Shown here in pieces: positions 3,228-18,738 of a stretch of DNA of 64,000 nucleotides; the stretch's first letter is position 1, and every line of letters starts with the position of its first letter. Origin of the DNA: a virus; the IMG/VR virus record IMGVR_UViG_3300025154_000068, positions 1 through 64,000 of that record; one strand, written 5' to 3'. Under the pieces are notes generated by a model. It saw only the letters and a list, made by a program, of their open reading frames with translations, had not been told where the DNA came from and did not search any database. The position numbers and the translations under genes were made by a program.

Positions 3228-4382
3228 ATGCGAGTAGTGATAACAGCGGACACACACGCAGACGAAAGGCGTAAGTGGTCGGAGCATTGCCGCGTGCTCG
3301 ACTGGATGGCCGAAGACATGCGCACAAGGCAAGTCGACCTGGTCTGTCACGGAGGCGACATCTACGATGGAGTGTCCACGCCCACAGGGCGCAAGTACGT
3401 CGCCGACTGGATCCAGCGCGTGGCGGAGTTCGCGCCGATGTGCCTCGTTGCAGGCAACCATGATCGACACCTCGACGTCGAACACATTGCGCGCCTACGA
3501 ACCAAGTACCCCATCATCGCGGTCGAGCGTCCTGGCGTTCACGTCGTAGCTGGCGTCGCTGTCGCGATGCTTCCATGGCCTAGGATGGCCCATCTGCTCG
3601 CGGCCTTGGGCCGGAACGTGGGGCGCGAGGAAGCCGGGCAGGTGGCGATCGAGGCGCTCCGGTCCGTTCTGACAGGCCTTGGCGTGGAGCTCGCGCGTCA
3701 TGCCGGCCCGCGCATTCTTCTCGCCCACGCCATGGTCGACGGGTCGAAGACGGATAGCCGACAGCCAATCATGGGAGCTGACCTTACCGTGTCGATCGCG
3801 GATATGTCGCTCTGCAAGGCCGACATCATGGTCGCTGGGCACGTGCACGCTGAGCAGGAGATGGCGCACGCTGGAGCCGACCTCGTCATTCCCGGATGCC
3901 CCTACCACCGCACGTTCGGTGAGCCTGGCCCGACGAGCTACGTGGTTGCGCACTTCGCCCCCGACAGGACCGCAGAACCGCCGACATGGGAGCGAATCTC
4001 TACCCCCGCGACGAAGATGCTGTTGCTCGATGCCGAATGGGACACCGAGAGCCAGGCACTCCTGGGGCACCACCGGTTCGTCGACGTGGAAGGCTGCGAA
4101 GTTCGCCTTCGCTACACAGTACCGAGCGACCAGCGAGAAAGCTCCAAGCAACGCGCGAATGAGGCCGAGGAAGCCTTGAAATCGCGCGGCGCAGTGAGCG
4201 TCAAAGTAGATGAGGTCGTGCTGCCCAAGACCCACGCCCGGGTGCCAGAGGTGGCGGAAGCCAAGACCCTGGAGCAGAAGCTCCGAGCGCTGTGGAAGGC
4301 GCGCGACCCGGAGTTGGAAGAGGCCCGCAAGTCGAGGCTGCTCGGCATGGCGGATGAACTGGAGAGGGAGGCCGCGACGTGA
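3228..4382 (+). CDS. sbcD: SbcD-like metallophosphoesterase (Mre11 family nuclease)
   Basis: 384 aa. Calcineurin-like phosphoesterase motifs are complete: D8/H10 (TADTHAD), D44 (GGDIYD), GNHD 76-79, H167 (LLAHAMV) and GHVH 204-207, which bind the two catalytic metal ions in SbcD/Mre11/gp47. The C-terminal region is Glu/Lys-rich and should contact the ATPase partner. The next gene starts with GTG inside its stop codon (GTGA overlap), so the pair is co-translated as for other SbcDC nucleases. It likely opens hairpins and processes DNA ends during phage replication or recombination. Confidence 0.9.
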   Translation: MRVVITADTHADERRKWSEHCRVLDWMAEDMRTRQVDLVCHGGDIYDGVSTPTGRKYVADWIQRVAEFAPMCLVAGNHDRHLDVEHIARLRTKYPIIAVERPGVHVVAGVAVAMLPWPRMAHLLAALGRNVGREEAGQVAIEALRSVLTGLGVELARHAGPRILLAHAMVDGSKTDSRQPIMGADLTVSIADMSLCKADIMVAGHVHAEQEMAHAGADLVIPGCPYHRTFGEPGPTSYVVAHFAPDRTAEPPTWERISTPATKMLLLDAEWDTESQALLGHHRFVDVEGCEVRLRYTVPSDQRESSKQRANEAEEALKSRGAVSVKVDEVVLPKTHARVPEVAEAKTLEQKLRALWKARDPELEEARKSRLLGMADELEREAAT

Positions 4383-6811
4383 GATACCGATCCATCCGCT
4401 TTGTAGGGATTCGACCGTACGCGGGCGAAGTGTTCCTCGACCTCGACTCGATTCCCGGACCGATCGTCGCGATCCACGGACCGAATGGGTCTGGCAAGTC
4501 CACGTTGTGCGAGATGCTCGCGACCGGCGCCTACCGTCGCACGCCAACGCATGGCCGCATCGTAGACATGGCGACGACCCGCGACGCCTACGTGGAAGTT
4601 GTGGTGGAAAACGGACAGACCTACACCGTGCGGCACAAGGTCGACGCAGTGAGCCGCAAGGGAACCTCCGAGGTCACTGGGCCCGCCGGCCCGGTGTTCG
4701 ACACGGGCAAGTCCAGCGACTTCGACGCGTGGGCGAAGGTGGTATTCCCTCCGCGCGAGGTCTACTTCGCCGGAGCGTTCTCTGCGCAGGAGTCCGACGG
4801 GCTGTTGAAAATGGACGGCTCTGACCGCATGCGAACGCTACTGAGAGCGATCGGGTGTGAACGCTACGAAGTACTCGCCAAGATCGCACGAGACAAAGCG
4901 GCTGCCGTTGCCAAACGGCTCGACGTACTCGCTGCGCGAATTGCCGATGAGCAGGTTCGAGGGCTTGACGTCGCGGTGGCTGAGCAGGAGTTGGTGGAAG
5001 CACGTGCCCGGGCAGCGGGGGCTGATGCCGAGCTTGAACAGGCAAAGGCCGAACTCGCGCGGGTCGAGGAGGAGGCACGGATCGCTCGAGAAGCGCGCAC
5101 CGCTTTCGAGACCCATGTCGACCGGACAGCGATGCTTCGCAATCTGCAGTTGGAGGTTCTCCAACGCATCGGCGACCTGGAGAAGCGCATTGCGAACAAC
5201 CGCATGGTGCTCGACGACGCAGATCGAATCCGTGCCGCCGTTTCCGATATCCCGACGCTACGCCAGGGCATGGAAGACCTTCGAGTCAAGTGCTCCGACG
5301 CAGCCCACGACGTCCGAGCCTTCGAGACGGAATCGCTCTCATGGCTTGGCCGATCGAAGGATGCCGAACGCCGGGTCACGGCAGCCAGTGCACGCGTCCA
5401 GTCTGCTCGGTATAGGCTCGCTGGTCGGGAAGCCGTTGAGCGCGCCGTGGCCGAACTGGAGCGCTTGCGCGATGCCGTTGGGGTTGCGGCGCAGGAGCAT
5501 CTTGCGGCAACGGAGGCGTACGAGGCGCTTGCAAGTCAGACGGTGGCAGGCCTTGGCGAGCGTATCGATGGGCTACGCGGTGGGCTGCAACGAATCGCGG
5601 ACCTCCCCGCTACCATCGAGAATGCGCAGGATATCGCGGCGCGTTCGTTGGACGCCGACGATACCGCAGCACGCCTTGCCATCGAGTTGCCACGTCTCAA
5701 GATCGAAGCGGTCGAGCGTTGGGACAAGGCCAGAATCGCTCTGGACAAGGCGCGAAGCCAACTCAGCACAGCCGAGGCCACCGCCTCACGTGCTCCCGAT
5801 CTGGACCTCGCACAGCAAGACCTTGACGCCGCGCAGGTCGACGCGCGCACGGCAACCGAGGAAGCGTTGGCACACGTTCGTCGTTCGAAAGATGCGCAGG
5901 CGAAGGCGGACGCAGCATCAAATAGCATGCACGCTCTCGGGGATGCGGTGTGCGCGGCGGAAGACCGGCTCGCCAAGGCTGAGGCCCTCGCCGCCCGCGC
6001 CAAGCACATCGACTCCGCACAAGCACGCATCGAAGAACTCGCCCTTCAGCTCGCTGCCGCGAACGCCGATCGCGAGCGCATCGAGGCCGACATGGAGGCC
6101 ATGGACCGCCCCCCAGTCGTTCCGCCGACGCCCAACGTGGAGCCTTCCACACTCGCCCTTCGACAAGCCGAACGCGCTGCCAGGGACGCCCACGCCGCGC
6201 CGCCAGTCCGAGAGCACGCCCTGAAGCAAGCGACGGAGTCGGTCGCCAAGCTCTACGCCCTGGCAGCAGAGCGCGCCGCCGTTGAGACGGAGATCGGCGA
6301 CTGGACAAAGCTGGCCGAGTCCTTGCGCGACCTTCAAAGCCTCGAGATCGATGCGGCCGGCCCCGAGCTCACCGAGCTGACGAACGATTTTCTGCGCTCC
6401 TGTGTTGGCGACAGGTGGTCGGTCTCGTGGGAGACGACGCGCATGGACAGCAAGGGCAAGAGGGAACTCGACGACTGCCACATCTCGGTGCTCGACACGG
6501 AGGAAGGGCGCGAGGCAAACGGCAAGGAATTCTCCCCGGGACAACGCGCTGTCGTGGAACTCGGGTGCTCGCTGGCGCTCACGACGTATTCGTGCCGAAA
6601 GCTGGGCATCGAGCGGCCCACCCTTGTTCGCGACGAGTCAGACGCGCCGATGACGGAGGAGGCGAGCGCGGCGTTCATCCCGATGCTCCGCCGGGCGGCG
6701 AAGCTCATCGACGCCGACAAGGTGCTCATCATCACCCACCGGCCGAACACCGTGGAGCTCGCCGACGCTCGAGTGCTCGTCGCCGATGGGAAGGTCGAGG
6801 TGCAGGTATGA
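4379..6811 (+). CDS. sbcC: SbcC-like ATPase (Rad50 family)
   Basis: 810 aa starting with GTG. Walker A GPNGSGKST is at residues 34-42. A long Ala/Glu/Arg-rich coiled coil fills about 175-650. The signature-like FSPGQRAVVELG is near 717, followed by a Walker-B-like LVRDESDAP and a His switch region LIITHRPN. I see no clear CxxC zinc hook at the coiled-coil apex, so dimerisation may differ from bacterial SbcC, and the length is short compared with E. coli SbcC (about 1050 aa), as in phage gp46-type proteins. It forms the nuclease complex with the upstream SbcD. Confidence 0.88.
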   Translation: MRYRSIRFVGIRPYAGEVFLDLDSIPGPIVAIHGPNGSGKSTLCEMLATGAYRRTPTHGRIVDMATTRDAYVEVVVENGQTYTVRHKVDAVSRKGTSEVTGPAGPVFDTGKSSDFDAWAKVVFPPREVYFAGAFSAQESDGLLKMDGSDRMRTLLRAIGCERYEVLAKIARDKAAAVAKRLDVLAARIADEQVRGLDVAVAEQELVEARARAAGADAELEQAKAELARVEEEARIAREARTAFETHVDRTAMLRNLQLEVLQRIGDLEKRIANNRMVLDDADRIRAAVSDIPTLRQGMEDLRVKCSDAAHDVRAFETESLSWLGRSKDAERRVTAASARVQSARYRLAGREAVERAVAELERLRDAVGVAAQEHLAATEAYEALASQTVAGLGERIDGLRGGLQRIADLPATIENAQDIAARSLDADDTAARLAIELPRLKIEAVERWDKARIALDKARSQLSTAEATASRAPDLDLAQQDLDAAQVDARTATEEALAHVRRSKDAQAKADAASNSMHALGDAVCAAEDRLAKAEALAARAKHIDSAQARIEELALQLAAANADRERIEADMEAMDRPPVVPPTPNVEPSTLALRQAERAARDAHAAPPVREHALKQATESVAKLYALAAERAAVETEIGDWTKLAESLRDLQSLEIDAAGPELTELTNDFLRSCVGDRWSVSWETTRMDSKGKRELDDCHISVLDTEEGREANGKEFSPGQRAVVELGCSLALTTYSCRKLGIERPTLVRDESDAPMTEEASAAFIPMLRRAAKLIDADKVLIITHRPNTVELADARVLVADGKVEVQV

Positions 6812-7732: not shown

Positions 7733-8169
7733 AGTGCCTGTCGATTCGCCAGCCGTGGGCCTGGTTCATCGTCAACGCCGGCAAGACCATCGAAAACCGC
7801 ACGTGGCGCTGCCATTACCGCGGCCGCATTGCCATTCACGCGAGCAAGCTCCCGACATCAGGGAGGCGCTACGAAGAGGCGATCGACGACTTCTACGCCG
7901 GCAAGGCGATGGCTTTGGACGGAGGCGTGGACCTGCGAAAGCATCCCACGCCGATCAAGATGGACATGCTCGTCGCCCAGTCCGGTGCGATCATCGGCAC
8001 AGCGCGGATCGTGGACTGCGTGACCACGTCCTCCTCCCCCTGGTTTGTGGGCCCGTTCGGGATCGTGCTCGAGGATGTCCGACCCACCCCCGTCATTCCG
8101 TGTCGCGGGTCACTCGGGCTGTGGACGGTGCCGCCGGAGGTTGAGCGGCGGATTCTGGAGGCAGCGTGA
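7729..8169 (+). CDS. ASCH-domain RNA/nucleotide-binding protein
   Basis: 146 aa. The opening CLSIRQPWAWFIVNAGKTIE followed by NRTW is the ASCH (PUA-like beta-barrel) signature. GAIIGTARIVD and the closing GSLGLWTVP are the other core strands. ASCH proteins bind or act on modified nucleosides or RNA; at least one bacterial member hydrolyses N4-acetylcytidine. ATGA overlaps with both neighbours place it in one unit with the DndC-like gene that follows, so a shared role in nucleic-acid modification is possible. Confidence 0.8.
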   Translation: MKCLSIRQPWAWFIVNAGKTIENRTWRCHYRGRIAIHASKLPTSGRRYEEAIDDFYAGKAMALDGGVDLRKHPTPIKMDMLVAQSGAIIGTARIVDCVTTSSSPWFVGPFGIVLEDVRPTPVIPCRGSLGLWTVPPEVERRILEAA

Positions 8170-9392
8170 GCGTCAAGCAATTGGCCCTCTTCGGCGGCCA
8201 ACGAATTCAGATGAGCGAGTCCATCGATCTGACGATCGCCTCGCTGAACGCCTACGGTCCGACTCACAGGCACTGGGCAATCGCGTGGAGCGGTGGGAAG
8301 GATTCCACGACGCTGGTCACACTGGTCGTGTACCTCATCGAATCCGGCAAGGTCGCCAGGCCGGAAACTCTCACCGTCCTATACGCGGACACGCGGATGG
8401 AGCTGCTGCCTCTGTACCACGCATCACTCGCCATCCGCGAAGAACTGGAGGAACGCGGCATCGACACACGAGTAGCGCTGGCTCCGCTCGACAAGCGGTA
8501 CTTCGTCTATGTGCTGGGCCGCGGGGTGCCACCACCAAACAACAACACGCTGCGATGGTGCACGCGCCAGATCAAGATCGATCCGATGGCTGCAGAGCTG
8601 CAGCGTCTCTTTGGAGACCGTGGCGAGAAGGTTCTGCTACTGACAGGGGTTCGGCAGGGGGAAAGCGCCATCCGCGACGGCCGGATCGCGATGTCCTGCG
8701 GTCGAAACGGCGCCGAGTGCGGGCAGGGTTGGTACCAAGAGACCATGCCGGAGCAGCTGTGCGACACCCTTGCTCCGCTGCTCCACTGGCGCGTCTGCCA
8801 CGTCTGGGAGTGGCTCAAGCACTGGGCCCCCGAGGTAGAGTTCGGCGACTGGTCGACGCGGTGGATCGCGGATGCATACGGAGGCGACGAGGCCGAGGAG
8901 ATCAACGCTCGCACCGGGTGCGTTGGATGTCCGCTCGCGAACAAGGATGCCGCGCTCGATTCTGTGATAGCCCAGCCTCAGTGGGAATACCTCGCGCCGC
9001 TGAAGGGGTTGCGTCCACTGTACCGAGAGCTGCGCAGCCCGCTTGTTAGGTTGCGCAAGCGAGGAATTGAGAGACGGAAGGATGGCACCGCGGCAAGTAA
9101 TCCGCAGCGCATGGGCCCCATCACTTTGGAAGCGAGGCGGCTCGCATTCGGTCGCATCTTGGCTATCCAAGATGCCGCGAACGAAGAGGCGGACAGGCTA
9201 GGACGTCCTCGCATCGACCTCATCAATGAGGAAGAGAAGGCCCGAATCGAAGAGCTGATAGATGCAGGAACGTGGCCGCAGAAGTGGTCTGAGGATGACG
9301 CGCTCGCCACCGAGATGATGGATTCCGTCTTTCCAGACGGAACGGTTCAGCCGTTGCTAGCAGCGTTCTGTGGGCAGGGAGGCAAGGAATGA
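8166..9392 (+). CDS. DndC/PAPS-reductase-like PP-loop protein
   Basis: 408 aa, GTG start overlapping the previous stop. PP-loop SGGKDST at residues 42-48 (WAIAWSGGKDST) defines the PAPS reductase/ATP pyrophosphatase fold. Cysteines at 132 (RWCTRQIKI), 178/185 (SCGRNGAEC) and 252/255 (GCVGC) are placed as in DndC, whose cysteines hold an Fe-S cluster used in DNA phosphorothioation. No DndA, DndB, DndD or DndE partner is visible in the window. It may modify phage DNA or tRNA, or act with host Dnd proteins; phage homologues are often annotated only as PAPS reductase. Confidence 0.75.
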   Translation: MSVKQLALFGGQRIQMSESIDLTIASLNAYGPTHRHWAIAWSGGKDSTTLVTLVVYLIESGKVARPETLTVLYADTRMELLPLYHASLAIREELEERGIDTRVALAPLDKRYFVYVLGRGVPPPNNNTLRWCTRQIKIDPMAAELQRLFGDRGEKVLLLTGVRQGESAIRDGRIAMSCGRNGAECGQGWYQETMPEQLCDTLAPLLHWRVCHVWEWLKHWAPEVEFGDWSTRWIADAYGGDEAEEINARTGCVGCPLANKDAALDSVIAQPQWEYLAPLKGLRPLYRELRSPLVRLRKRGIERRKDGTAASNPQRMGPITLEARRLAFGRILAIQDAANEEADRLGRPRIDLINEEEKARIEELIDAGTWPQKWSEDDALATEMMDSVFPDGTVQPLLAAFCGQGGKE

Positions 9393-10812: not shown

Positions 10813-11246
10813 ACATCATAGTTACACGACGACATGGGCGCGAGAAGTTCCTCCAAGCCCTCTCGGAGTACGAACAGGAATTCCGACGCAGAGTCATCTC
10901 CATCCTGGTGACAGAACTCGAACAGCACGAGTTCAGATTCCCGAACGAGAGGGACCTCCAAGACGGGATCGAGCAGGCGATCTCCGCCGCCGGTCTGACC
11001 TACGAGCGCGAAGCCGTCCTGGACGAGCGAAGCCGGGTCGACTTCCTTCTCTGCCCAGGGGTCGCAGTCGAGGTGAAGGTGGACGGCTCGAGCGCGGACG
11101 TCATGCGCCAACTCCACCGGTACGCGCTGAGTCCTGCGGTGCGGGCGATCGTGCTGGTGACCACGCGGCAACGACACTGCAGCGTCCCGCGCGAACTCGC
11201 GGGCAAGCCGATCACTATCGTCGTTCTGACTCGGAGCATGTTGTGA
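10809..11246 (+). CDS. PD-(D/E)XK-type nuclease
   Basis: 145 aa. The segment ERDLQDGIEQAI, then SRVDFLL and VAVEVKVDGS gives the E, D, ExK order of the PD-(D/E)XK nuclease core, and the following helix and strand (AIVLVTTR) complete the fold. GTGA overlap couples it to the SNF2 helicase downstream, so the two probably act together on DNA. It could serve recombination or attack other DNA; the sequence does not decide. Confidence 0.65.
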   Translation: MNIIVTRRHGREKFLQALSEYEQEFRRRVISILVTELEQHEFRFPNERDLQDGIEQAISAAGLTYEREAVLDERSRVDFLLCPGVAVEVKVDGSSADVMRQLHRYALSPAVRAIVLVTTRQRHCSVPRELAGKPITIVVLTRSML

Positions 11247-12979
11247 GGACCTACGGAACAGTCACGTTGAAGGGCGAGACCTGGGTGGTCGAGTGCGAGC
11301 CTCACGTCCTGCTCCGGCTCAAGCGTATGTTCGCCCGGGCTGGTCGAGCTCACGGTGCCGTGAAGTTGAGCGCGACTCCGGAGGTCAGCCTCGAACTCCG
11401 ATGGTTCCTCCAGCGTTACCCGATGGAGGTGACCCCCAGTGGGGAACTCGACGCTCGCGCGGACGCCCACCAGGAGTCGATGGCGCTGGTCGACGCCCTG
11501 CTCTCGAGACAGGTTGAGCCGCTGGCGTTCGACCTGGCGATACCGCTCCGCGAGTACCAGCGCCTGGCCGCAAGCGTGACCCTGGCGACGGGGAGCCTGC
11601 TCTTGGCGGACGACGTCGGGATCGGGAAGACAGCGAGCGCGATCGGCATCTTCTCGGACCCGCGGACGTTGCCAGCGTTGGTCGTCACCCTGACCCACCT
11701 CCCCAAGCAGTGGGAGAACGAGATCCACCGATTCGCTCCGCGCCTGCGTACCCACATCCTGAAGAAAGGGACTCCGTACGACCTGACCCAGCTCGGCCGG
11801 GCGCGCGGGAAGCAGCTCTCGCTGGCAGGCACGTTCCCAGACGTGATCATCACGAACTACCACAAGCTGGCTGGCTGGGTAGACACCCTCGCGCCGGCCC
11901 GCAAGGCGCCACTGGTGCGCTCCATCGTCTTCGACGAATGCCAGGAACTCCGCACGGGCAAGAAGAGCAACAAGGGGGCAGCGGCTCATCACGTCGCCAA
12001 GAAAGCCGCCTTCCGCCTCGGGCTGAGCGCGACTCCGATCTACAACTACGGGGGCGAGTTCCATGCGGTGATGGAGTGCCTACGACCCGGCGCCCTCGGG
12101 ACGTGGGAGGAGTTCAACGAGGAGTGGTGCATCGGATCGAGCGACAAGCCGCGGATCAAAGATCCCAAGGCGTTCGGTAGCTACATGCGAGAGACCGGGC
12201 TCATGCTCAGGCGCACGCGCTCCGACGTCGGCCGGGAACTCCCAGCTCTGACCAAGGTTCCGCACCACGTCGACGCGGACCCCGCGGTGTTCGACAAGGT
12301 GGCGGACGCTGCCAGCGAGCTCGCCCGCATCATCCTCCGCCAGGGCCAGGAGACACGCGGTGAGAAGATGCTCGCGAGCGACGAGCTGAACGTAAAACTC
12401 CGCCAGGCCACCGGGCTCGCGAAGGCTCCGTTCGTCGCGGAGTTTGTGCGCATGCTCGCGGACTCCGGCGAGCGGGTGGTTCTCTACGGCTGGCACCGCG
12501 ACGTCTATTCGGTGTGGCTCCAGCGTCTGCGCGCTTTCGCCCCAGCGATGTACACGGGGACTGAGAGCACGTCTCAGAAGGATGTCGCCCGCAAGCGATT
12601 CTTGGAGGGCGAGACACCGATCCTCATCATGTCACTGCGGTCTGGCGCCGGCTTGGACGGCCTCCAGAACGCGTGTCGGACGGTCGTGTTCGGCGAACTC
12701 GACTGGTCCCCCGGGGTCCACGAACAGTGTACGGGGCGCGTGTACCGCGACGGGCAAGTCGATCCGGTTGTGGCGTACTACCTCCTTGCGGACACCGGTA
12801 GCGACCCGATCGTTGCGGACGTGCTCGGCCTGAAGAAGCAGCAGATCGAGGGGCTCCGCGACCCAGATGGGGCGCTGGTCGAGAAGCTCGATGTTGGGGA
12901 GGGCAACGTGCGCAGGTTAGCGGAGGCCTTCCTGGCGCAGAGAGGTATTCAGATCGAAAATGCCCGTCCGCCCAAGTAA
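11243..12979 (+). CDS. SNF2-family DNA translocase/helicase
   Basis: 578 aa starting with GTG. Motif I DDVGIGKT (123-130), motif II DECQ (231-234) in place of the usual DEAH, motif III GLSATP, and motif VI GRVYRDGQ mark a full two-lobe SF2/SNF2 motor. About 100 N-terminal residues precede the motor. The gene is coupled to a nuclease gene and ends the first long operon before a repeat-rich gap. Likely role: phage replication, repair or fork remodelling. Confidence 0.85.
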   Translation: MRTYGTVTLKGETWVVECEPHVLLRLKRMFARAGRAHGAVKLSATPEVSLELRWFLQRYPMEVTPSGELDARADAHQESMALVDALLSRQVEPLAFDLAIPLREYQRLAASVTLATGSLLLADDVGIGKTASAIGIFSDPRTLPALVVTLTHLPKQWENEIHRFAPRLRTHILKKGTPYDLTQLGRARGKQLSLAGTFPDVIITNYHKLAGWVDTLAPARKAPLVRSIVFDECQELRTGKKSNKGAAAHHVAKKAAFRLGLSATPIYNYGGEFHAVMECLRPGALGTWEEFNEEWCIGSSDKPRIKDPKAFGSYMRETGLMLRRTRSDVGRELPALTKVPHHVDADPAVFDKVADAASELARIILRQGQETRGEKMLASDELNVKLRQATGLAKAPFVAEFVRMLADSGERVVLYGWHRDVYSVWLQRLRAFAPAMYTGTESTSQKDVARKRFLEGETPILIMSLRSGAGLDGLQNACRTVVFGELDWSPGVHEQCTGRVYRDGQVDPVVAYYLLADTGSDPIVADVLGLKKQQIEGLRDPDGALVEKLDVGEGNVRRLAEAFLAQRGIQIENARPPK

Positions 12980-13335: not shown

Positions 13336-13713
13336 ATGAACAGTGTCTCAAGAGGGCGGAAGTCAGGACAGGGCAGCAAGTGGATCCGACCCGAGAAACG
13401 TCTCGCCATCTACCACCGAGATGGCTTCTGCTGCGCATATTGCGGCGCTGGTGCCGAGGACGGCGACTACCTGACGCTGGACCACATCGTCCCTTGCGAG
13501 GTCGGCGGGACCAACCACCATCACAACCTGATCACCGCGTGCGGACACTGCAACAGCTCGAAACAGGACAAGCCCATGCGCCAGTGGCTGACAGCTCTCC
13601 GCGATCAAGGCGTCGATACCAGCAAGATCGCTGCGCGGGTGCGACGGCTGACCGCCAAGAAGCTGAACAAGGCGAAGGGGAAAGAACTTCTTCTCGACCG
13701 CAACGCGGCATAA
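13336..13713 (+). CDS. HNH endonuclease
   Basis: 125 aa. The core has CAYC, then YLTLDHIVPCEVGG (catalytic His after Asp), NLITAC and CxxC closing with NSSKQDK, a standard zinc-stabilised HNH domain. A basic C-terminal tail follows. It stands alone after the control region and may be a free-standing homing endonuclease or a phage nuclease. The start is not supported by a strong ribosome-binding site; GTG 13342 is an alternative. Confidence 0.8.
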   Translation: MNSVSRGRKSGQGSKWIRPEKRLAIYHRDGFCCAYCGAGAEDGDYLTLDHIVPCEVGGTNHHHNLITACGHCNSSKQDKPMRQWLTALRDQGVDTSKIAARVRRLTAKKLNKAKGKELLLDRNAA

Positions 13714-13794: not shown

Positions 13795-14391
13795 ATGGAC
13801 ACCGAGCCTTCTGTCACCATCAAGCCCGTCACCGGAAAACGCGCGTTGTTCTGTCACTACAAGGGGCAGTTCTCTCCGCAGGACTGCTTCGTCGAGCTCG
13901 ACTGCGAGGAGCGGACGTTGTCCGCCTCCTACAACGGTGAGATCGGCAACTCGATCCCGTTCCGCGTCTACCATCGCCGCTGCATTCGCTGGACGATCCC
14001 TTGTCTCACCGCAGACGCCGCGAACGCGCTGCTCGAGGAGTTGGCAGACGAAGCCGCGATCGTGTGCGACGGCTACGAGAGCGTGTGGGATGGCCACAAC
14101 CACATCGGTAAGCTGGACGACGATGCAAGGGCCGCGAGCGAGACGATTCAGGCGACATGCGAGGGCGGGTCGTGGAGTGACCACGAGATTATCTCCCCGC
14201 CCTGGCACGCGGGCGACTGGTACGAGCCGGTGAACGTCGAGCAGGAGCTCGGCATCACTGTCGAGACCACGAACGAGCAGCTCGCCGAACTGGCCGAGCG
14301 TGAGGAATCGGCAGCGAATGCCGAGGGACACGAGGTCGAGGGCATTTTTGAGCACCTGACCAGCGTGCGAGATAGGCTCGCTGAGGAGTAG
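13795..14391 (+). CDS. Hypothetical acidic protein
   Basis: 198 aa. CACGGAG is upstream of the ATG. The N-terminal half is beta-rich with paired Cys (LFCHYKGQF, DCFVELDCEE, IRWTIPCLT). The C-terminal third is Glu/Ala-rich helix. No family recognised. It lies with two other acidic hypothetical proteins. Confidence 0.6.
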   Translation: MDTEPSVTIKPVTGKRALFCHYKGQFSPQDCFVELDCEERTLSASYNGEIGNSIPFRVYHRRCIRWTIPCLTADAANALLEELADEAAIVCDGYESVWDGHNHIGKLDDDARAASETIQATCEGGSWSDHEIISPPWHAGDWYEPVNVEQELGITVETTNEQLAELAEREESAANAEGHEVEGIFEHLTSVRDRLAEE

Positions 14392-14434: not shown

Positions 14435-14464
14435 TTGAGGACGCAAAAGACCAAGGAGAAGTCC

Positions 14465-15352
14465 ATGAGCACGAACACCGCAAAATCCCTCGCCCGCACC
14501 CTTATCGCCGATGACATGTCCCGCGCAGACGAGACCCCAGTGGAGCGCGACGGAGCGAAGGCCGTCGCAGGCTGGCTCCAGTCGGCTCACGACGCGGGCG
14601 ACTCCGACACATACGAGGCCATCGAGGCCTGCGGAGCCGATGCGGTGGCGAGAGCGTGGGATGCCCTGATCGATGAGATGTATCCTGAGGAGGACGAGGA
14701 GGAGGACGAAGGCGTGGACGCTGACGATTGCTGCCTCGCCTGCGGACACCCTGCCGATGGCAGCAGCGGGCACGGCGCGTGTCACGCCCCCTGCCACACG
14801 CAGGACCGGTCGGAGTGGACCCGTCCCGACGCGGAGCCCGCGACGAAAGAGGATGTGACCCGCTGGGAGTCCGTCGCTGCCTACGTGTCTACCTTCCCCT
14901 CGGACGACGGCGAGGGCGCTTGCGATGGCGAGGTGAGGGTTGGAGAGGCGGGTGTCCGCTGGTACGTCCAGACCTCGGACGAGGCTGGCGGGAGCGACGA
15001 GGCCGATGACACGGCCTACGATACCCGCAAGGAGGCGGTGGCTGCGGCTGAGGAGTTGGCCGATCGCCTCGGTGAGGGCGAACCTGGCGAGGACGCTGAG
15101 GACTACCTCGCGCGCAAGCTCCGAGAGCGCGCAGGCGAGCCCTGCACGGACGGCGAGTGGTGCGTGTACTGGTCCACGTCCCTCGAAGACAGCGGCCCCC
15201 GCGAGCGATACGACTCCGAGGACGCCGCCCGGGCGGCAGTCGAGATCGCGAACGCGGACCTCCACGCGGCGCACCCCGGCGGGAATCTGCTCTGCGGGTT
15301 CGAGGTCCGCGAGCTCGTGGACGGCGAGTGGGTGAGGTCGGACGACGAGTAG
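14465..15352 (+). CDS. Hypothetical very acidic protein with zinc knuckle
   Basis: 295 aa. ATG 14465 follows AAGGAGAA (14453-14460); an in-frame ATG at 14435 has no such site. Residues about 75-85 are an unbroken Glu/Asp run. It is followed by CCLACGHP and then HGACHAPC, a likely zinc site. The rest is rich in Glu, Asp and Ala. Strong negative charge suggests DNA mimicry or binding of basic proteins; that is inference. Confidence 0.6.
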   Translation: MSTNTAKSLARTLIADDMSRADETPVERDGAKAVAGWLQSAHDAGDSDTYEAIEACGADAVARAWDALIDEMYPEEDEEEDEGVDADDCCLACGHPADGSSGHGACHAPCHTQDRSEWTRPDAEPATKEDVTRWESVAAYVSTFPSDDGEGACDGEVRVGEAGVRWYVQTSDEAGGSDEADDTAYDTRKEAVAAAEELADRLGEGEPGEDAEDYLARKLRERAGEPCTDGEWCVYWSTSLEDSGPRERYDSEDAARAAVEIANADLHAAHPGGNLLCGFEVRELVDGEWVRSDDE

Positions 15353-15652: not shown

Positions 15653-16648
15653 ATGCCTGACACCCCACGCCCCGCCCAACACCTCCAACGCATCTCCGCA
15701 CTGTTCCCGAAGTTCTGGCGAACGTACGACGAGTTCCGCGCTGACCGAGGCCGAGGCCTGCCCGAGTGGCCGAACTGGTGCTACGCCCCTCTCGCGGCCT
15801 CATACGCGATCGTGAGCGGCGGCGGGGACAACCGCGTGCCGTTCGACCAGGCCCACCTCATCGCCGAGCTTGGGGCGCTCGCAGCGTGGCGGCCCGGCAA
15901 GGGCATCTACCGCTTCGATGAGGATCTCGCTCGCGCTCTGCTCGACACACCGATCACGGGAGACCTTCCGCGCGAGGTGCTCCACAGGCTCCCGGAGTGG
16001 TGCGTGTACGTCGAAACGCCGTGGCTCGCCCCAGAGATGCTCGGGTTCTTCGCCCACCTCGAGTGGGATGCGGGTGACGGCCGCTCGGAGCTGCGCATCA
16101 TCACGGACTCGGATGTCGGCGGCGTTCCGAAGCTGACGCCGATCATCCTGCACCTCGTTGAAGGGGCGCTGGAGGATGCGCTGCACGCGTTCGAGGCGGA
16201 GGCCGCCATTCAATGGCAGAAGGCCGGCAGTCCTGCGTGGATCGGGCCCCGCCCGATCGCGGCGGATGTTGCGGAGGTCGTTCGGCCGCTTCTCTCGCTC
16301 CTGCTCTACATCTGCAGCGACGACGCCGACTACGCAGGCGACGCCCGTCCCGTCAGGCCCAAGCCGAAGAAGACGAACAAGGGGATGCGTCTGGTCGCTC
16401 CCGATGCGCCGGTGCTGTGGGACGTCGGTGTCCGGATCGGCGCAGCTCTGCGCGGAGCGACGCGGGCGGCTGAAAGCGAGCCAGAAGGGGGCACGCACGC
16501 CTCCCCTCGCCCTCACGTCCGCCGGGCCCATTGGCACACGTACCTGACCGGAAAGGGACGCACGACGAGGGCGCTGCGGTGGGTGTCTCCCATGCTTGTT
16601 GGGAGCGGTGGAACGGTGCCGACGGTGCGGAAGGTTGGGTTGGAGTAA
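15653..16648 (+). CDS. AcrVA2-like protein
   Basis: 331 aa. Several blocks follow the order I recall for AcrVA2, the phage anti-CRISPR acting against Cas12a (about 320 aa): LAAWRPGKGIYRFDEDL, LHRLPEWCVYVETPW, a DSDVGGVPKLTPIIL stretch, SLLLYICSDDADY, and the C-terminal RPHVRRAHWHTY followed by ALRWVSPMLVG. AcrVA2 relatives occur in many phages and plasmids of hosts without known Cas12a, so the target here may be another protein. It closes the plus-strand operon and is convergent with the toxin-antitoxin module. Confidence 0.7.
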   Translation: MPDTPRPAQHLQRISALFPKFWRTYDEFRADRGRGLPEWPNWCYAPLAASYAIVSGGGDNRVPFDQAHLIAELGALAAWRPGKGIYRFDEDLARALLDTPITGDLPREVLHRLPEWCVYVETPWLAPEMLGFFAHLEWDAGDGRSELRIITDSDVGGVPKLTPIILHLVEGALEDALHAFEAEAAIQWQKAGSPAWIGPRPIAADVAEVVRPLLSLLLYICSDDADYAGDARPVRPKPKKTNKGMRLVAPDAPVLWDVGVRIGAALRGATRAAESEPEGGTHASPRPHVRRAHWHTYLTGKGRTTRALRWVSPMLVGSGGTVPTVRKVGLE

Positions 16649-16796: not shown

Positions 16797-17273
16797 CTAG
16801 GCCGCTGTCCTCGTCCCCGAAGCCGCTTGGATCTCCGCAACGTCATCCGTGAAGTCCAGCACCATCTGAATGGGCGCAACGTCCATGTGCTTGTCGTTGT
16901 AGACGTCGACATCGATCTTGAGCTGAACGCAATCGCCAACGATCTGCCTGCGTCTCTGCCCGAATGCTTTGACCATGTGTTCGCGCGGCGCGACGTCCAA
17001 TTCAGCCCACAAGGACGACTGTACGCCGCCGCTCGTAATGGTAACCGAATGGTTTACTCGGAATCTCCTACCTGTGTCGTCTGTCCGATACTCCTCCCGA
17101 AGTGCCCTCGCCATGTCGCGGCAAAGCAACGCCACAGGATCCACGTCGGGTGCCTGCAACAGGCCATTCGCCATCGCCCACTCGACTACTTCGCGAGGCG
17201 TCGCAGGAGTGCCGCCGCGCTCCTTTTCGAAGCGATGATAGAGCGTCTGCAACTGCTCGTTGTACGGTACCAT
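16797..17273 (-). CDS. Third gene of toxin-antitoxin module, conserved hypothetical
   Basis: 158 aa. The start is MVPYNEQLQTLYHRF, with TAGGAG upstream on the minus strand; a longer reading from 17390 would run into the antitoxin gene. The pattern ATPREVVEWAMANGLLQ, then DMARALREEYRTDDTGRR is one I associate with genes next to HigA-type regulators. It lies 20 bp after the antitoxin. Role unknown, perhaps a chaperone or target of the module. Confidence 0.6.
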   Translation of the reverse strand: MVPYNEQLQTLYHRFEKERGGTPATPREVVEWAMANGLLQAPDVDPVALLCRDMARALREEYRTDDTGRRFRVNHSVTITSGGVQSSLWAELDVAPREHMVKAFGQRRRQIVGDCVQLKIDVDVYNDKHMDVAPIQMVLDFTDDVAEIQAASGTRTAA

Positions 17274-17293
17274 AGCATCTCCTAGACGGACGC

Positions 17294-18424
17294 CTAGACG
17301 GACGCCGTCACCTCTCCCCATCCATCTACGGTAGCCGATGGGAGCACTGCAAATCTGATCTTCACAAGGTGTTTTCCAAACACGTTCCACTTATTGATGC
17401 GTCGGCGAAGCTGCCCGGCGACGATCCCCGGGTGAACACCCAACACCCTAGCGAAACCGACAAGATCCACTTCAGAAAAGAATGGGCTCTTCCTAGCAAC
17501 GAACGAGTCCATCTGCTTTGTAGGAACACAAAAATCAGTAGCAGCGCGGTTCGCCGCTCGTTCCGAGGTAGGCAACTCGGTTCCGGTGCCGGCGTTGTCG
17601 CCCTCTAGTTCCGCGTCGACTATGGCTTCCGTGCGCCCATCCTTTCGCAGGACGTGTTCCAGTTCATGACGAAGCACAAACCAGAAGTTATCGATCCTGT
17701 CGAAGCGCATGGACATCGCGATGACTGGACGTTCTTCGTCGAGCCAGAAGCAGGCGCCGTCGATCTTCGATCCAGGTAGCGACTCGACGATTACAAACCG
17801 CACGCCACACTCGGCAACAACTCGCGGTACATGACGCGCCTCTTCCGGCTCGGTCAAAAATGCTCGCAGTCTGTCGAGACTCTCGCGGAGTGCCCTTTCC
17901 GAGTACGTCGGGAGCACCATCTCGCGCGCAAGCTGACGGGCACGGCAAAGCCACGCGATCTGCGATGGCGACGCTTGCTCGCTGTAATCGGTTCTCTTAG
18001 CGGCCGCGCTGAACTGCGGCTCGTCGTCAAGCGACGACATTTCGAGAAAGCTCATCACCCTCTGCTCAAGTACGTCGATGCTGTCGGTGGGTTCGACCCA
18101 CCCTCGGCGAAGCAATTCCTTTATCGGGGCCTTGGCATAAAGGCGGGCGCGGCGGCCGACGACATCGCCCGGTGCGCGCGCCCGCGATAGCCGGTAGGCG
18201 CTCTCAAGATTCATCCAAACCTGTGGGTCCATGGCGAATGCGGCGCCCAGCCCATGGGCTGTTTCTGGCGTGAGATGCTTCTTGCCGGCAATGATTTCGC
18301 TGACCAGTCGCGCTGGCCGGCCCAGGATCTCTGCGAGATCGGCCTGCGTCCAGCCGCGTGCCTCAAGCTCGTCCTTCACGAACTCCCCGGGCGAGAAAAC
18401 TTCTGCGGGAATGCGCTGGTCCAT
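17294..18424 (-). CDS. higA: HigA-type antitoxin with ImmA/IrrE-like metalloprotease domain
   Basis: 376 aa starting MDQRIPAEVF, with AGGGGTAAG before the ATG. A Xre-type HTH covers about residues 12-60 (GWTQADLAEILGRPARLVSE). The C-terminal half holds HELEH at 253-257 (FVLRHELEHVLR), the zinc motif of ImmA/IrrE proteases. It follows the toxin by 11 bp. The HTH should bind the palindromes at the module's promoter. The metalloprotease half may cut a regulator when triggered; this is known for ImmA but not shown here. Confidence 0.8.
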   Translation of the reverse strand: MDQRIPAEVFSPGEFVKDELEARGWTQADLAEILGRPARLVSEIIAGKKHLTPETAHGLGAAFAMDPQVWMNLESAYRLSRARAPGDVVGRRARLYAKAPIKELLRRGWVEPTDSIDVLEQRVMSFLEMSSLDDEPQFSAAAKRTDYSEQASPSQIAWLCRARQLAREMVLPTYSERALRESLDRLRAFLTEPEEARHVPRVVAECGVRFVIVESLPGSKIDGACFWLDEERPVIAMSMRFDRIDNFWFVLRHELEHVLRKDGRTEAIVDAELEGDNAGTGTELPTSERAANRAATDFCVPTKQMDSFVARKSPFFSEVDLVGFARVLGVHPGIVAGQLRRRINKWNVFGKHLVKIRFAVLPSATVDGWGEVTASV

Positions 18425-18435
18425 CGTTCTTACCC

Positions 18436-18738
18436 CTAGTGGTAGTCCTCGATCCTCACGATGGTGATGACCTTCGCCTGAGCCTCGGTGCCATTGTTGA
18501 GCCTCACAATGAGTCGCCACTGGTCGTTCAGGCGCAGCGAATAGTCATCAACTCGGCTTCCTTTCAGTCTTTCGAAACGAAACGACCGCATCTGTCGAAG
18601 GGACCGCTCGTCCGGAGCGGCTCGAATGAACTGCATGGTCTTCCGATATGAACGGACGATCGCCTGCGTGAACCCCGCGTTGAACCTTGGATCCGTTTCC
18701 AAGCGATCGAGGCTTCGGTCAAGGAAGAGCACTTCCAT
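18436..18738 (-). CDS. higB: HigB/RelE-type toxin
   Basis: 100 aa, plasmid-maintenance killer (HigB) type. The C-terminal block RMRSFRFERLKGSRVDDYSL, then RLNDQWRLIVRLNNG has the charged loop and strands of RelE-fold mRNA interferases (reading QMRSFRFERLKG in the sequence). The toxin-first order with an HTH antitoxin downstream is typical of higBA. Its -10 element is only about 12 bases before the ATG and there is no Shine-Dalgarno, so the mRNA may be almost leaderless. Confidence 0.8.
   Translation of the reverse strand: MEVLFLDRSLDRLETDPRFNAGFTQAIVRSYRKTMQFIRAAPDERSLRQMRSFRFERLKGSRVDDYSLRLNDQWRLIVRLNNGTEAQAKVITIVRIEDYH

What the first reader, a model, noticed from the sequence alone, without database searches (positions are those of the whole stretch)
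15653..16648. AcrVA2-like anti-CRISPR relative
The 331-aa protein follows the block order I recall for AcrVA2, including RPHVRRAHWHTY and RWVSPMLVG near its end and WCVYVET in the middle. AcrVA2 acts against Cas12a synthesis. A relative at the end of a phage accessory operon, next to a toxin-antitoxin module, may mark an anti-defence locus.
Basis: partly seen in the sequence, partly recalled or inferred. Interest (0 to 1): 0.72.

Follow-up and report, generated by a model that had tools for sequence, protein, structure and literature searches.

The report
Phage relative of AcrVA2 and FinQ
A phage gene belongs to the same protein family as the anti-CRISPR AcrVA2 and, unexpectedly, as FinQ, a plasmid protein that shuts off a rival plasmid's transfer genes, which suggests one widespread toolkit that mobile elements use to remove the messages of chosen rival or host genes.

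Summary
It is homologous to AcrVA2. A single-sequence search of solved structures finds only AcrVA2 (E 1.7e-20), a family profile matches AcrVA2 end to end (E 7.8e-67), and a confident AlphaFold model (pLDDT 91.5) matches only the AcrVA2 crystal structures. It is not a close AcrVA2: about 25% identical, in another branch of a large family on phages and plasmids. No Cas12a was found in 20 carriers tested. A Cas12a target is therefore unproven and not the likeliest. The unexpected result is that the Enterobacteriaceae members are FinQ, the fertility-inhibition protein of IncI1 plasmids. FinQ matches AcrVA2 directly (E 3.9e-17) and the family profile (E 4.7e-39). Nineteen residues, including R-P-H-x-R-R-x-H-x-H, are shared by AcrVA2, FinQ and this protein. 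Both studied members lower a specific target's transcripts: AcrVA2 by translation-coupled decay of cas12a mRNA, FinQ by 'termination' in the F tra operon. I propose that the window protein is a target-specific transcript silencer of this family, target unknown. No held paper mentions both FinQ and anti-CRISPR. The mechanism is inferred.

The parts
15653..16648 (+). AcrVA2/FinQ-family gene, 331 aa (P0001)
   Evidence: open frame; phrog_6160 E 1.3e-50; AcrVA2 7CI1 E 1.7e-20; AlphaFold model matches 7CI2/7CI1; dN/dS about 0.15 against L002
15887..16021 (+). Conserved central block, residues 79-123 (W79, Y86, P106, P114, Y119 shared by AcrVA2 and FinQ)
   Evidence: 80-sequence alignment; alignments
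16508..16561 (+). Most conserved block, residues 286-303 (RPHVRRAHWHTYLTGKGR); H288, R290, H293 and H295 present in 80 of 80 relatives
   Evidence: lowest mean entropy of the protein, 1.14 bits; predicted beta hairpin, strands 288-290 and 293-299
13336..13713 (+). Upstream gene: HNH endonuclease, 125 aa
   Evidence: Pfam PF01844 E 3.3e-10
13795..14391 (+). Upstream gene, 198 aa, unknown function
   Evidence: ORF; weak relative L053 4264-4947 directly upstream of another family member
14435..15352 (+). Upstream acidic protein, 305 aa, unknown; part of it recurs upstream of family members in L002/L003 and L084
15362..15562 (+). Small ORF, 66 aa, directly upstream; unknown and uncertain as a gene
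   Evidence: no family match
16797..17390 (-). Convergent gene, 197 aa, unknown
17294..18520 (-). HigA-like antitoxin/regulator (HTH plus IrrE-type M78 domain)
   Evidence: Pfam HTH_31 E 7.1e-7, Peptidase_M78 E 2.3e-5
18436..18738 (-). HigB-like (RelE-type) toxin
   Evidence: Pfam PF05015 E 1.3e-7

Best explanation
The gene encodes a phage member of a superfamily that unites AcrVA2 and FinQ. It most likely acts as a target-specific transcript silencer: it recognises one particular protein, probably as its nascent chain on the ribosome, and causes loss of the mRNA that encodes it. The conserved C-terminal and central core would be the shared effector part, and the variable N-terminal and 171-212 regions would help set the target. 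The target is unknown and is more likely a host defence or rival-element gene other than cas12a. Shown here: gene, homology, fold, conserved core, FinQ link. Known from others' work: AcrVA2 and FinQ each lower a specific target's transcripts. Inferred: that this protein does so, that it works through the nascent chain, and the division into effector and recognition parts.
For: Homology to AcrVA2 by sequence, profile and fold. Homology of FinQ to AcrVA2 (E 3.9e-17), to the family profile without AcrVA2 in it (E 4.7e-39 over 257 columns) and to phrog_6160 (E 9.6e-48). Nineteen residues identical in this protein, AcrVA2, its two nearer relatives, FinQ and an Acinetobacter plasmid member; H288/R290/H293/H295/W79/W310 in 80 of 80. 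AcrVA2 recognises the nascent Cas12a N-terminus and triggers cas12a mRNA decay (PMC13131331). FinQ stops tra operon transcription at multiple sites, Rho-independently (PMC8744291 citing Ham and Skurray 1989), an effect that mRNA decay could also produce. The family sits on phages and mainly conjugative plasmids in hosts such as E. coli that are not known to carry Cas12a.
Against: No functional data on this protein. FinQ was described as causing transcription termination, not decay, and no LSKT-like motif lies near the N-terminus of any F Tra protein, so the AcrVA2 recognition rule does not carry over to FinQ as it stands. At about 25% identity the biochemical function may have changed. The degradation machinery for AcrVA2 itself is unknown.
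Confidence: 0.45

Rival explanations
1. It is a true anti-Cas12a protein: it recognises the nascent Cas12a N-terminus and removes cas12a mRNA, as AcrVA2 does.
For: Same fold and conserved core as AcrVA2; phage gene at the end of an accessory run. The host is unknown, so a Cas12a host is not excluded.
Against: Distant from the AcrVA2/Moraxella/Shewanella-phage group, and closer relatives form other branches. No Cas12a in 20 carriers tested; Cas12a found in 1 of 369 genomes of the class searched, while the family is spread over plasmids of many phyla. Even the Shewanella phage member annotated AcrVA2 is discussed beside a type I-E, not a Cas12a, system (PMC10846135).
Confidence: 0.12
2. It is a FinQ-like transcription terminator or RNA-polymerase-directed factor: the family acts on transcription of chosen operons rather than through the nascent chain, and AcrVA2's translation dependence reflects coupled transcription and translation.
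For: FinQ is a member and was reported to end tra transcription at several sites. The invariant His/Arg/Trp hairpin would suit nucleic-acid contact (inference).
Against: AcrVA2 depends on the amino-acid sequence of the Cas12a N-terminus rather than on nucleotides or promoter (PMC13131331).
Confidence: 0.2
3. It is a peptide-binding inhibitor: it binds the finished target protein (as the AcrVA2 crystal with an internal Cas12a peptide suggests), and transcript effects are secondary or absent in this branch.
For: 7CI2 shows AcrVA2 bound to Cas12a residues about 618-636 (PMC13131331, PMC10846135).
Against: The functional role of that interface is unsettled. Pocket positions proposed by docking are not conserved across the family.
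Confidence: 0.15

Closest known systems
AcrVA2 (Moraxella bovoculi; PDB 7CI1, 7CI2)
   Same: Full-length homology and fold; all core motifs (LPxWxxY, GFF/GFW, YLC/WLC, RPHxRRxHWH, RW) conserved
   Different: About 25% identity, different branch, loops at 124-170 and 171-212 differ; no evidence of a Cas12a target
FinQ (IncI1 plasmids, fertility inhibition of F)
   Same: Homologous over the central and C-terminal parts, 26% identity over 248 aa; profile E 4.7e-39; same invariant core
   Different: Plasmid-borne, acts on the F tra operon; N-terminal part not alignable in profile comparison; about 22% identity overall
Shewanella phage vB_SbaS_Y11 ORF43 (annotated AcrVA2, PMC10846135)
   Same: Phage-borne AcrVA2 homologue, same phrog_6160
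   Different: Groups with AcrVA2 (100% support), 42% identical to it, against 24% to this protein
PHROG 6160 (unknown function)
   Same: This protein (E 1.3e-50), Moraxella phage Mcat1, Y11 and FinQ all match it
   Different: Carries no functional label in PHROGs

Membership tests
AcrVA2 family | Significant sequence homology over the whole protein | tested here: met
   phmmer E 1.7e-20; profile E 7.8e-67, positions 4-321 to 2-320
AcrVA2 family | AcrVA2 fold | tested here: met
   pLDDT 91.5 model; Foldseek 7CI2 E 7.5e-15, 7CI1 TM 0.63/0.70; nothing else below E 0.1
AcrVA2 family | Orthology with, or clustering next to, tested AcrVA2 proteins | tested here: not met
   quick ML tree: P0001 with L002 and L031 (98); AcrVA2, Mcat1 and Y11 apart (100)
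AcrVA2 family | Peptide-binding pocket for Cas12a | tested here: inconclusive
   only docking-derived positions were available; they vary across the family; 7CI2 coordinates could not be read
AcrVA2 family | Inhibits Cas12a / lowers cas12a mRNA | not testable with these tools
   needs a plaque assay and RT-qPCR
AcrVA2 family | Carriers or hosts encode Cas12a | tested here: inconclusive
   0 of 20 carriers (5 genomes, 12 plasmids, 3 viral records), model works (1 of 369 genomes, E 8.7e-176); the host of this phage is unknown
FinQ family | Sequence homology to FinQ | tested here: met
   BLASTP E 7e-22; profile E 4.7e-39
FinQ family | Inhibits F conjugation / tra transcription | not testable with these tools
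   mating assay needed; the gene is on a phage, not an IncI plasmid
Acr-Aca type operon | HTH (Aca-like) regulator directly beside the gene | tested here: not met
   none adjacent in the window; the nearest HTH protein is the convergent HigA-like one. Small HTH genes do adjoin the gene in several other viral loci

The most novel reading that the evidence does not exclude
AcrVA2, FinQ and hundreds of 'hypothetical' phage and plasmid proteins form one class of programmable, protein-sequence-guided transcript silencers used in conflicts among mobile elements and hosts. FinQ's 1980s 'transcription termination' would then be co-translational mRNA decay, and the window protein a member with a new target.
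Probability: 0.35. Interest if true: 0.85.

Novelty: new member of a known kind. Interest (0 to 1): 0.62.

Why it matters
AcrVA2 is the first bacterial example of nascent-peptide-guided mRNA decay, and its machinery is unknown. Placing a classical, genetically tractable E. coli plasmid factor (FinQ) in the same family gives a second target system to dissect it, suggests that the family's targets extend well beyond Cas12a, and makes hundreds of uncharacterised phage and plasmid genes candidates for the same activity.

Tried and rejected
Pfam, NCBIfam and PADLOC give no match, but neither Pfam nor NCBIfam matches the Moraxella phage Mcat1 homologue of AcrVA2, so this says nothing against membership. 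Mapping of the docking-derived Cas12a pocket from PMC10846135 was uninformative. A search for an LSKT-like N-terminal motif in 33 F plasmid Tra/Trb proteins was negative: none within the first 40 residues, 0.47 expected by shuffling for the relaxed pattern. Host assignment failed: only 2% of the first 25 kb matches any phage record (Pseudomonas phages, PAPS-reductase gene, 76%), plasmids none, SbcC-like protein only Leptospira phage LE1, no tRNA. A large 'neighbour family' was frame shadow of the gene itself and was discarded. Promoter and terminator scans were no better than shuffles. Considered and rejected: coincidence of motifs (E-values, fold), and a toxin-antitoxin operon partner (convergent strand, a gene between). 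The careful ML tree did not finish; the quick tree is used.

Full report
OBSERVATION. The frame 15653-16648 (+) is open for 331 aa and contains the quoted blocks. It is a gene under selection: against its nearest relative found (L002, 77% identity) changes fall mainly at third codon positions, dN 0.18 against dS 1.23. The window is part of an 83,034-base virus record with phage genes such as a tape-measure protein and an SbcCD-like pair.

WHAT IT IS. Pfam, NCBIfam and PADLOC are silent, but they have no usable model: Pfam and NCBIfam also miss the Moraxella phage Mcat1 homologue, which is 58% identical to AcrVA2. PHROG 6160, unlabelled, matches with E 1.3e-50, and the same PHROG matches Moraxella phage Mcat1 with E 6.6e-109. 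Against all solved structures the single sequence finds only AcrVA2, E 1.7e-20 in two stretches. A profile of 18 relatives that does not contain AcrVA2 itself matches it end to end, E 7.8e-67; note that the profile includes the Mcat1 homologue. An AlphaFold model from 60 phage and genome relatives (pLDDT 91.5, pTM 0.90) matches 7CI2 and 7CI1 (E 7.5e-15 to 3.1e-13, TM 0.60-0.70) and nothing else below E 0.1 in the PDB. In the viral model library only uncharacterised phage proteins match with E below 0.001, apart from one named a putative mycothiosynthase.

HOW CLOSE. Identity to AcrVA2 is about 25%, to Mcat1 22%, to Y11 24%. In a quick ML tree of 80 sequences the window protein groups with L002 and L031 (support 98), while AcrVA2, Mcat1 and Y11 form their own group (100) on the other side of a supported split. 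The tree is unrooted, the careful search did not finish, and several long branches (FinQ among them) are unsure in place.

THE FINQ LINK. Homologues occur in 699 of 72,556 plasmid records, mostly conjugative. The Enterobacteriaceae rows in an even sample of them are almost all annotated FinQ. The full FinQ frame (363 aa, L110:3740-4831; the annotated start in that record leaves out 104 residues) matches AcrVA2 in the PDB with E 3.9e-17, in two separate stretches. It matches the profile of phage relatives with 99.96% probability and E 4.7e-39 over 257 columns, and PHROG 6160 with E 9.6e-48. Nineteen positions are identical in the window protein, AcrVA2, Mcat1, Y11, FinQ and an Acinetobacter plasmid protein: W79 Y86 P106 P114 Y119 G131 D152 L218 G259 R286 P287 H288 R290 R291 H293 H295 G300 W310 V316. 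W79, H288, R290, H293, H295 and W310 occur in 80 of 80 sequences. The most conserved stretch is 286-303 and the most variable 171-212. No paper in the held library contains both FinQ and anti-CRISPR. Preprints are not held, so prior notice elsewhere cannot be excluded.

MECHANISM. AcrVA2 recognises the nascent Cas12a N-terminus (LSKT) and triggers decay of cas12a mRNA; the decay machinery is unknown (PMC13131331). A 2025 meeting report says AcrVA2 can silence other enzymes when they carry the tag (PMC12908700). FinQ ends transcription of the F tra operon at multiple sites independently of Rho (PMC8744291 citing Ham and Skurray 1989). Both studied members thus reduce transcripts of one specific target. 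The simplest common reading is a family of target-specific transcript silencers with a shared core and changing targets. The window protein, with the whole core, is most likely one of them. This step is inference. A naive transfer of AcrVA2's recognition motif to F Tra proteins fails, so FinQ's recognition element must differ, or its mechanism does.

TARGET. No Cas12a was found in five carrier genomes, twelve carrier plasmids and three viral records; the model works, since it finds Cas12a in 1 of 369 genomes of the class. Plasmids alone cannot show what their hosts carry, and five genomes is a small sample, so this is weak evidence. That E. coli and Salmonella, which carry the FinQ branch, use type I systems and not Cas12a is general knowledge, not tested here. 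The host of this phage could not be assigned.

CONTEXT. Upstream on the same strand are an HNH gene, two unknown genes and a small ORF; downstream genes are convergent: a 197-aa unknown, then the HigA/HigB-like pair. Outside the gene, L002, the nearest relative, shares only a 105-base piece of the 305-aa upstream gene and a 52-base piece near window 19,500, so the gene moves among contexts. Elsewhere the family is found overlapping the end of a BREX gene run on a Thioflavicoccus plasmid, a few genes from two annotated antirestriction genes in Shewanella phage Y11, near an ArdC-like gene, overlapping a solo cas1-like gene in L085, and beside small HTH genes in several phages. This fits an accessory conflict gene but does not name a target.

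VERDICT. The homology claim is confirmed. Membership of the wider AcrVA2/FinQ family is supported; identity as an anti-Cas12a protein is not shown. Interest comes chiefly from the FinQ connection.

Noticed in passing
L110:3740-4831 and L111:3001-3783: finQ annotations are truncated: in L110 the open frame starts 104 codons before the annotated start. In L111 the 5' part of finQ is replaced next to a blaCMY/sugE insertion, leaving a 260-aa remnant.
   Followed up: partly
L011:967-7020 (Thioflavicoccus mobilis plasmid pTHIMO01): A family member overlaps by 4 nt the end of a gene run with pglZ and brxL, as if part of a BREX operon.
   Followed up: no
L085:4214-5885: A phage-borne solo cas1 (type I-E like by PADLOC) overlaps the start of a family member by 80 nt; no CRISPR-like repeat array was seen in the 10.8-kb locus.
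   Followed up: partly
L028, L030, L033, L034, L042, L044, L070: Small (60-94 aa) HTH proteins lie beside or close to the family gene, in L033 overlapping its stop codon; this resembles acr-aca pairs.
   Followed up: partly
window 8166-9392 (+): PAPS-reductase-family gene (phrog_12882 E 1.2e-193), 76% identical in DNA to Pseudomonas phage genes, the only stretch of the first 25 kb with a megablast match in the phage collection.
   Followed up: no
window 3228-6811 (+): SbcD- and SbcC-like nuclease pair; the SbcC-like protein matches only Leptospira phage LE1 in the phage collection, over 20% of its length.
   Followed up: no
window 11243-12979 (+): SNF2-type helicase overlapping by 4 nt a 145-aa gene of phrog_5928 (unknown function).
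   Followed up: no
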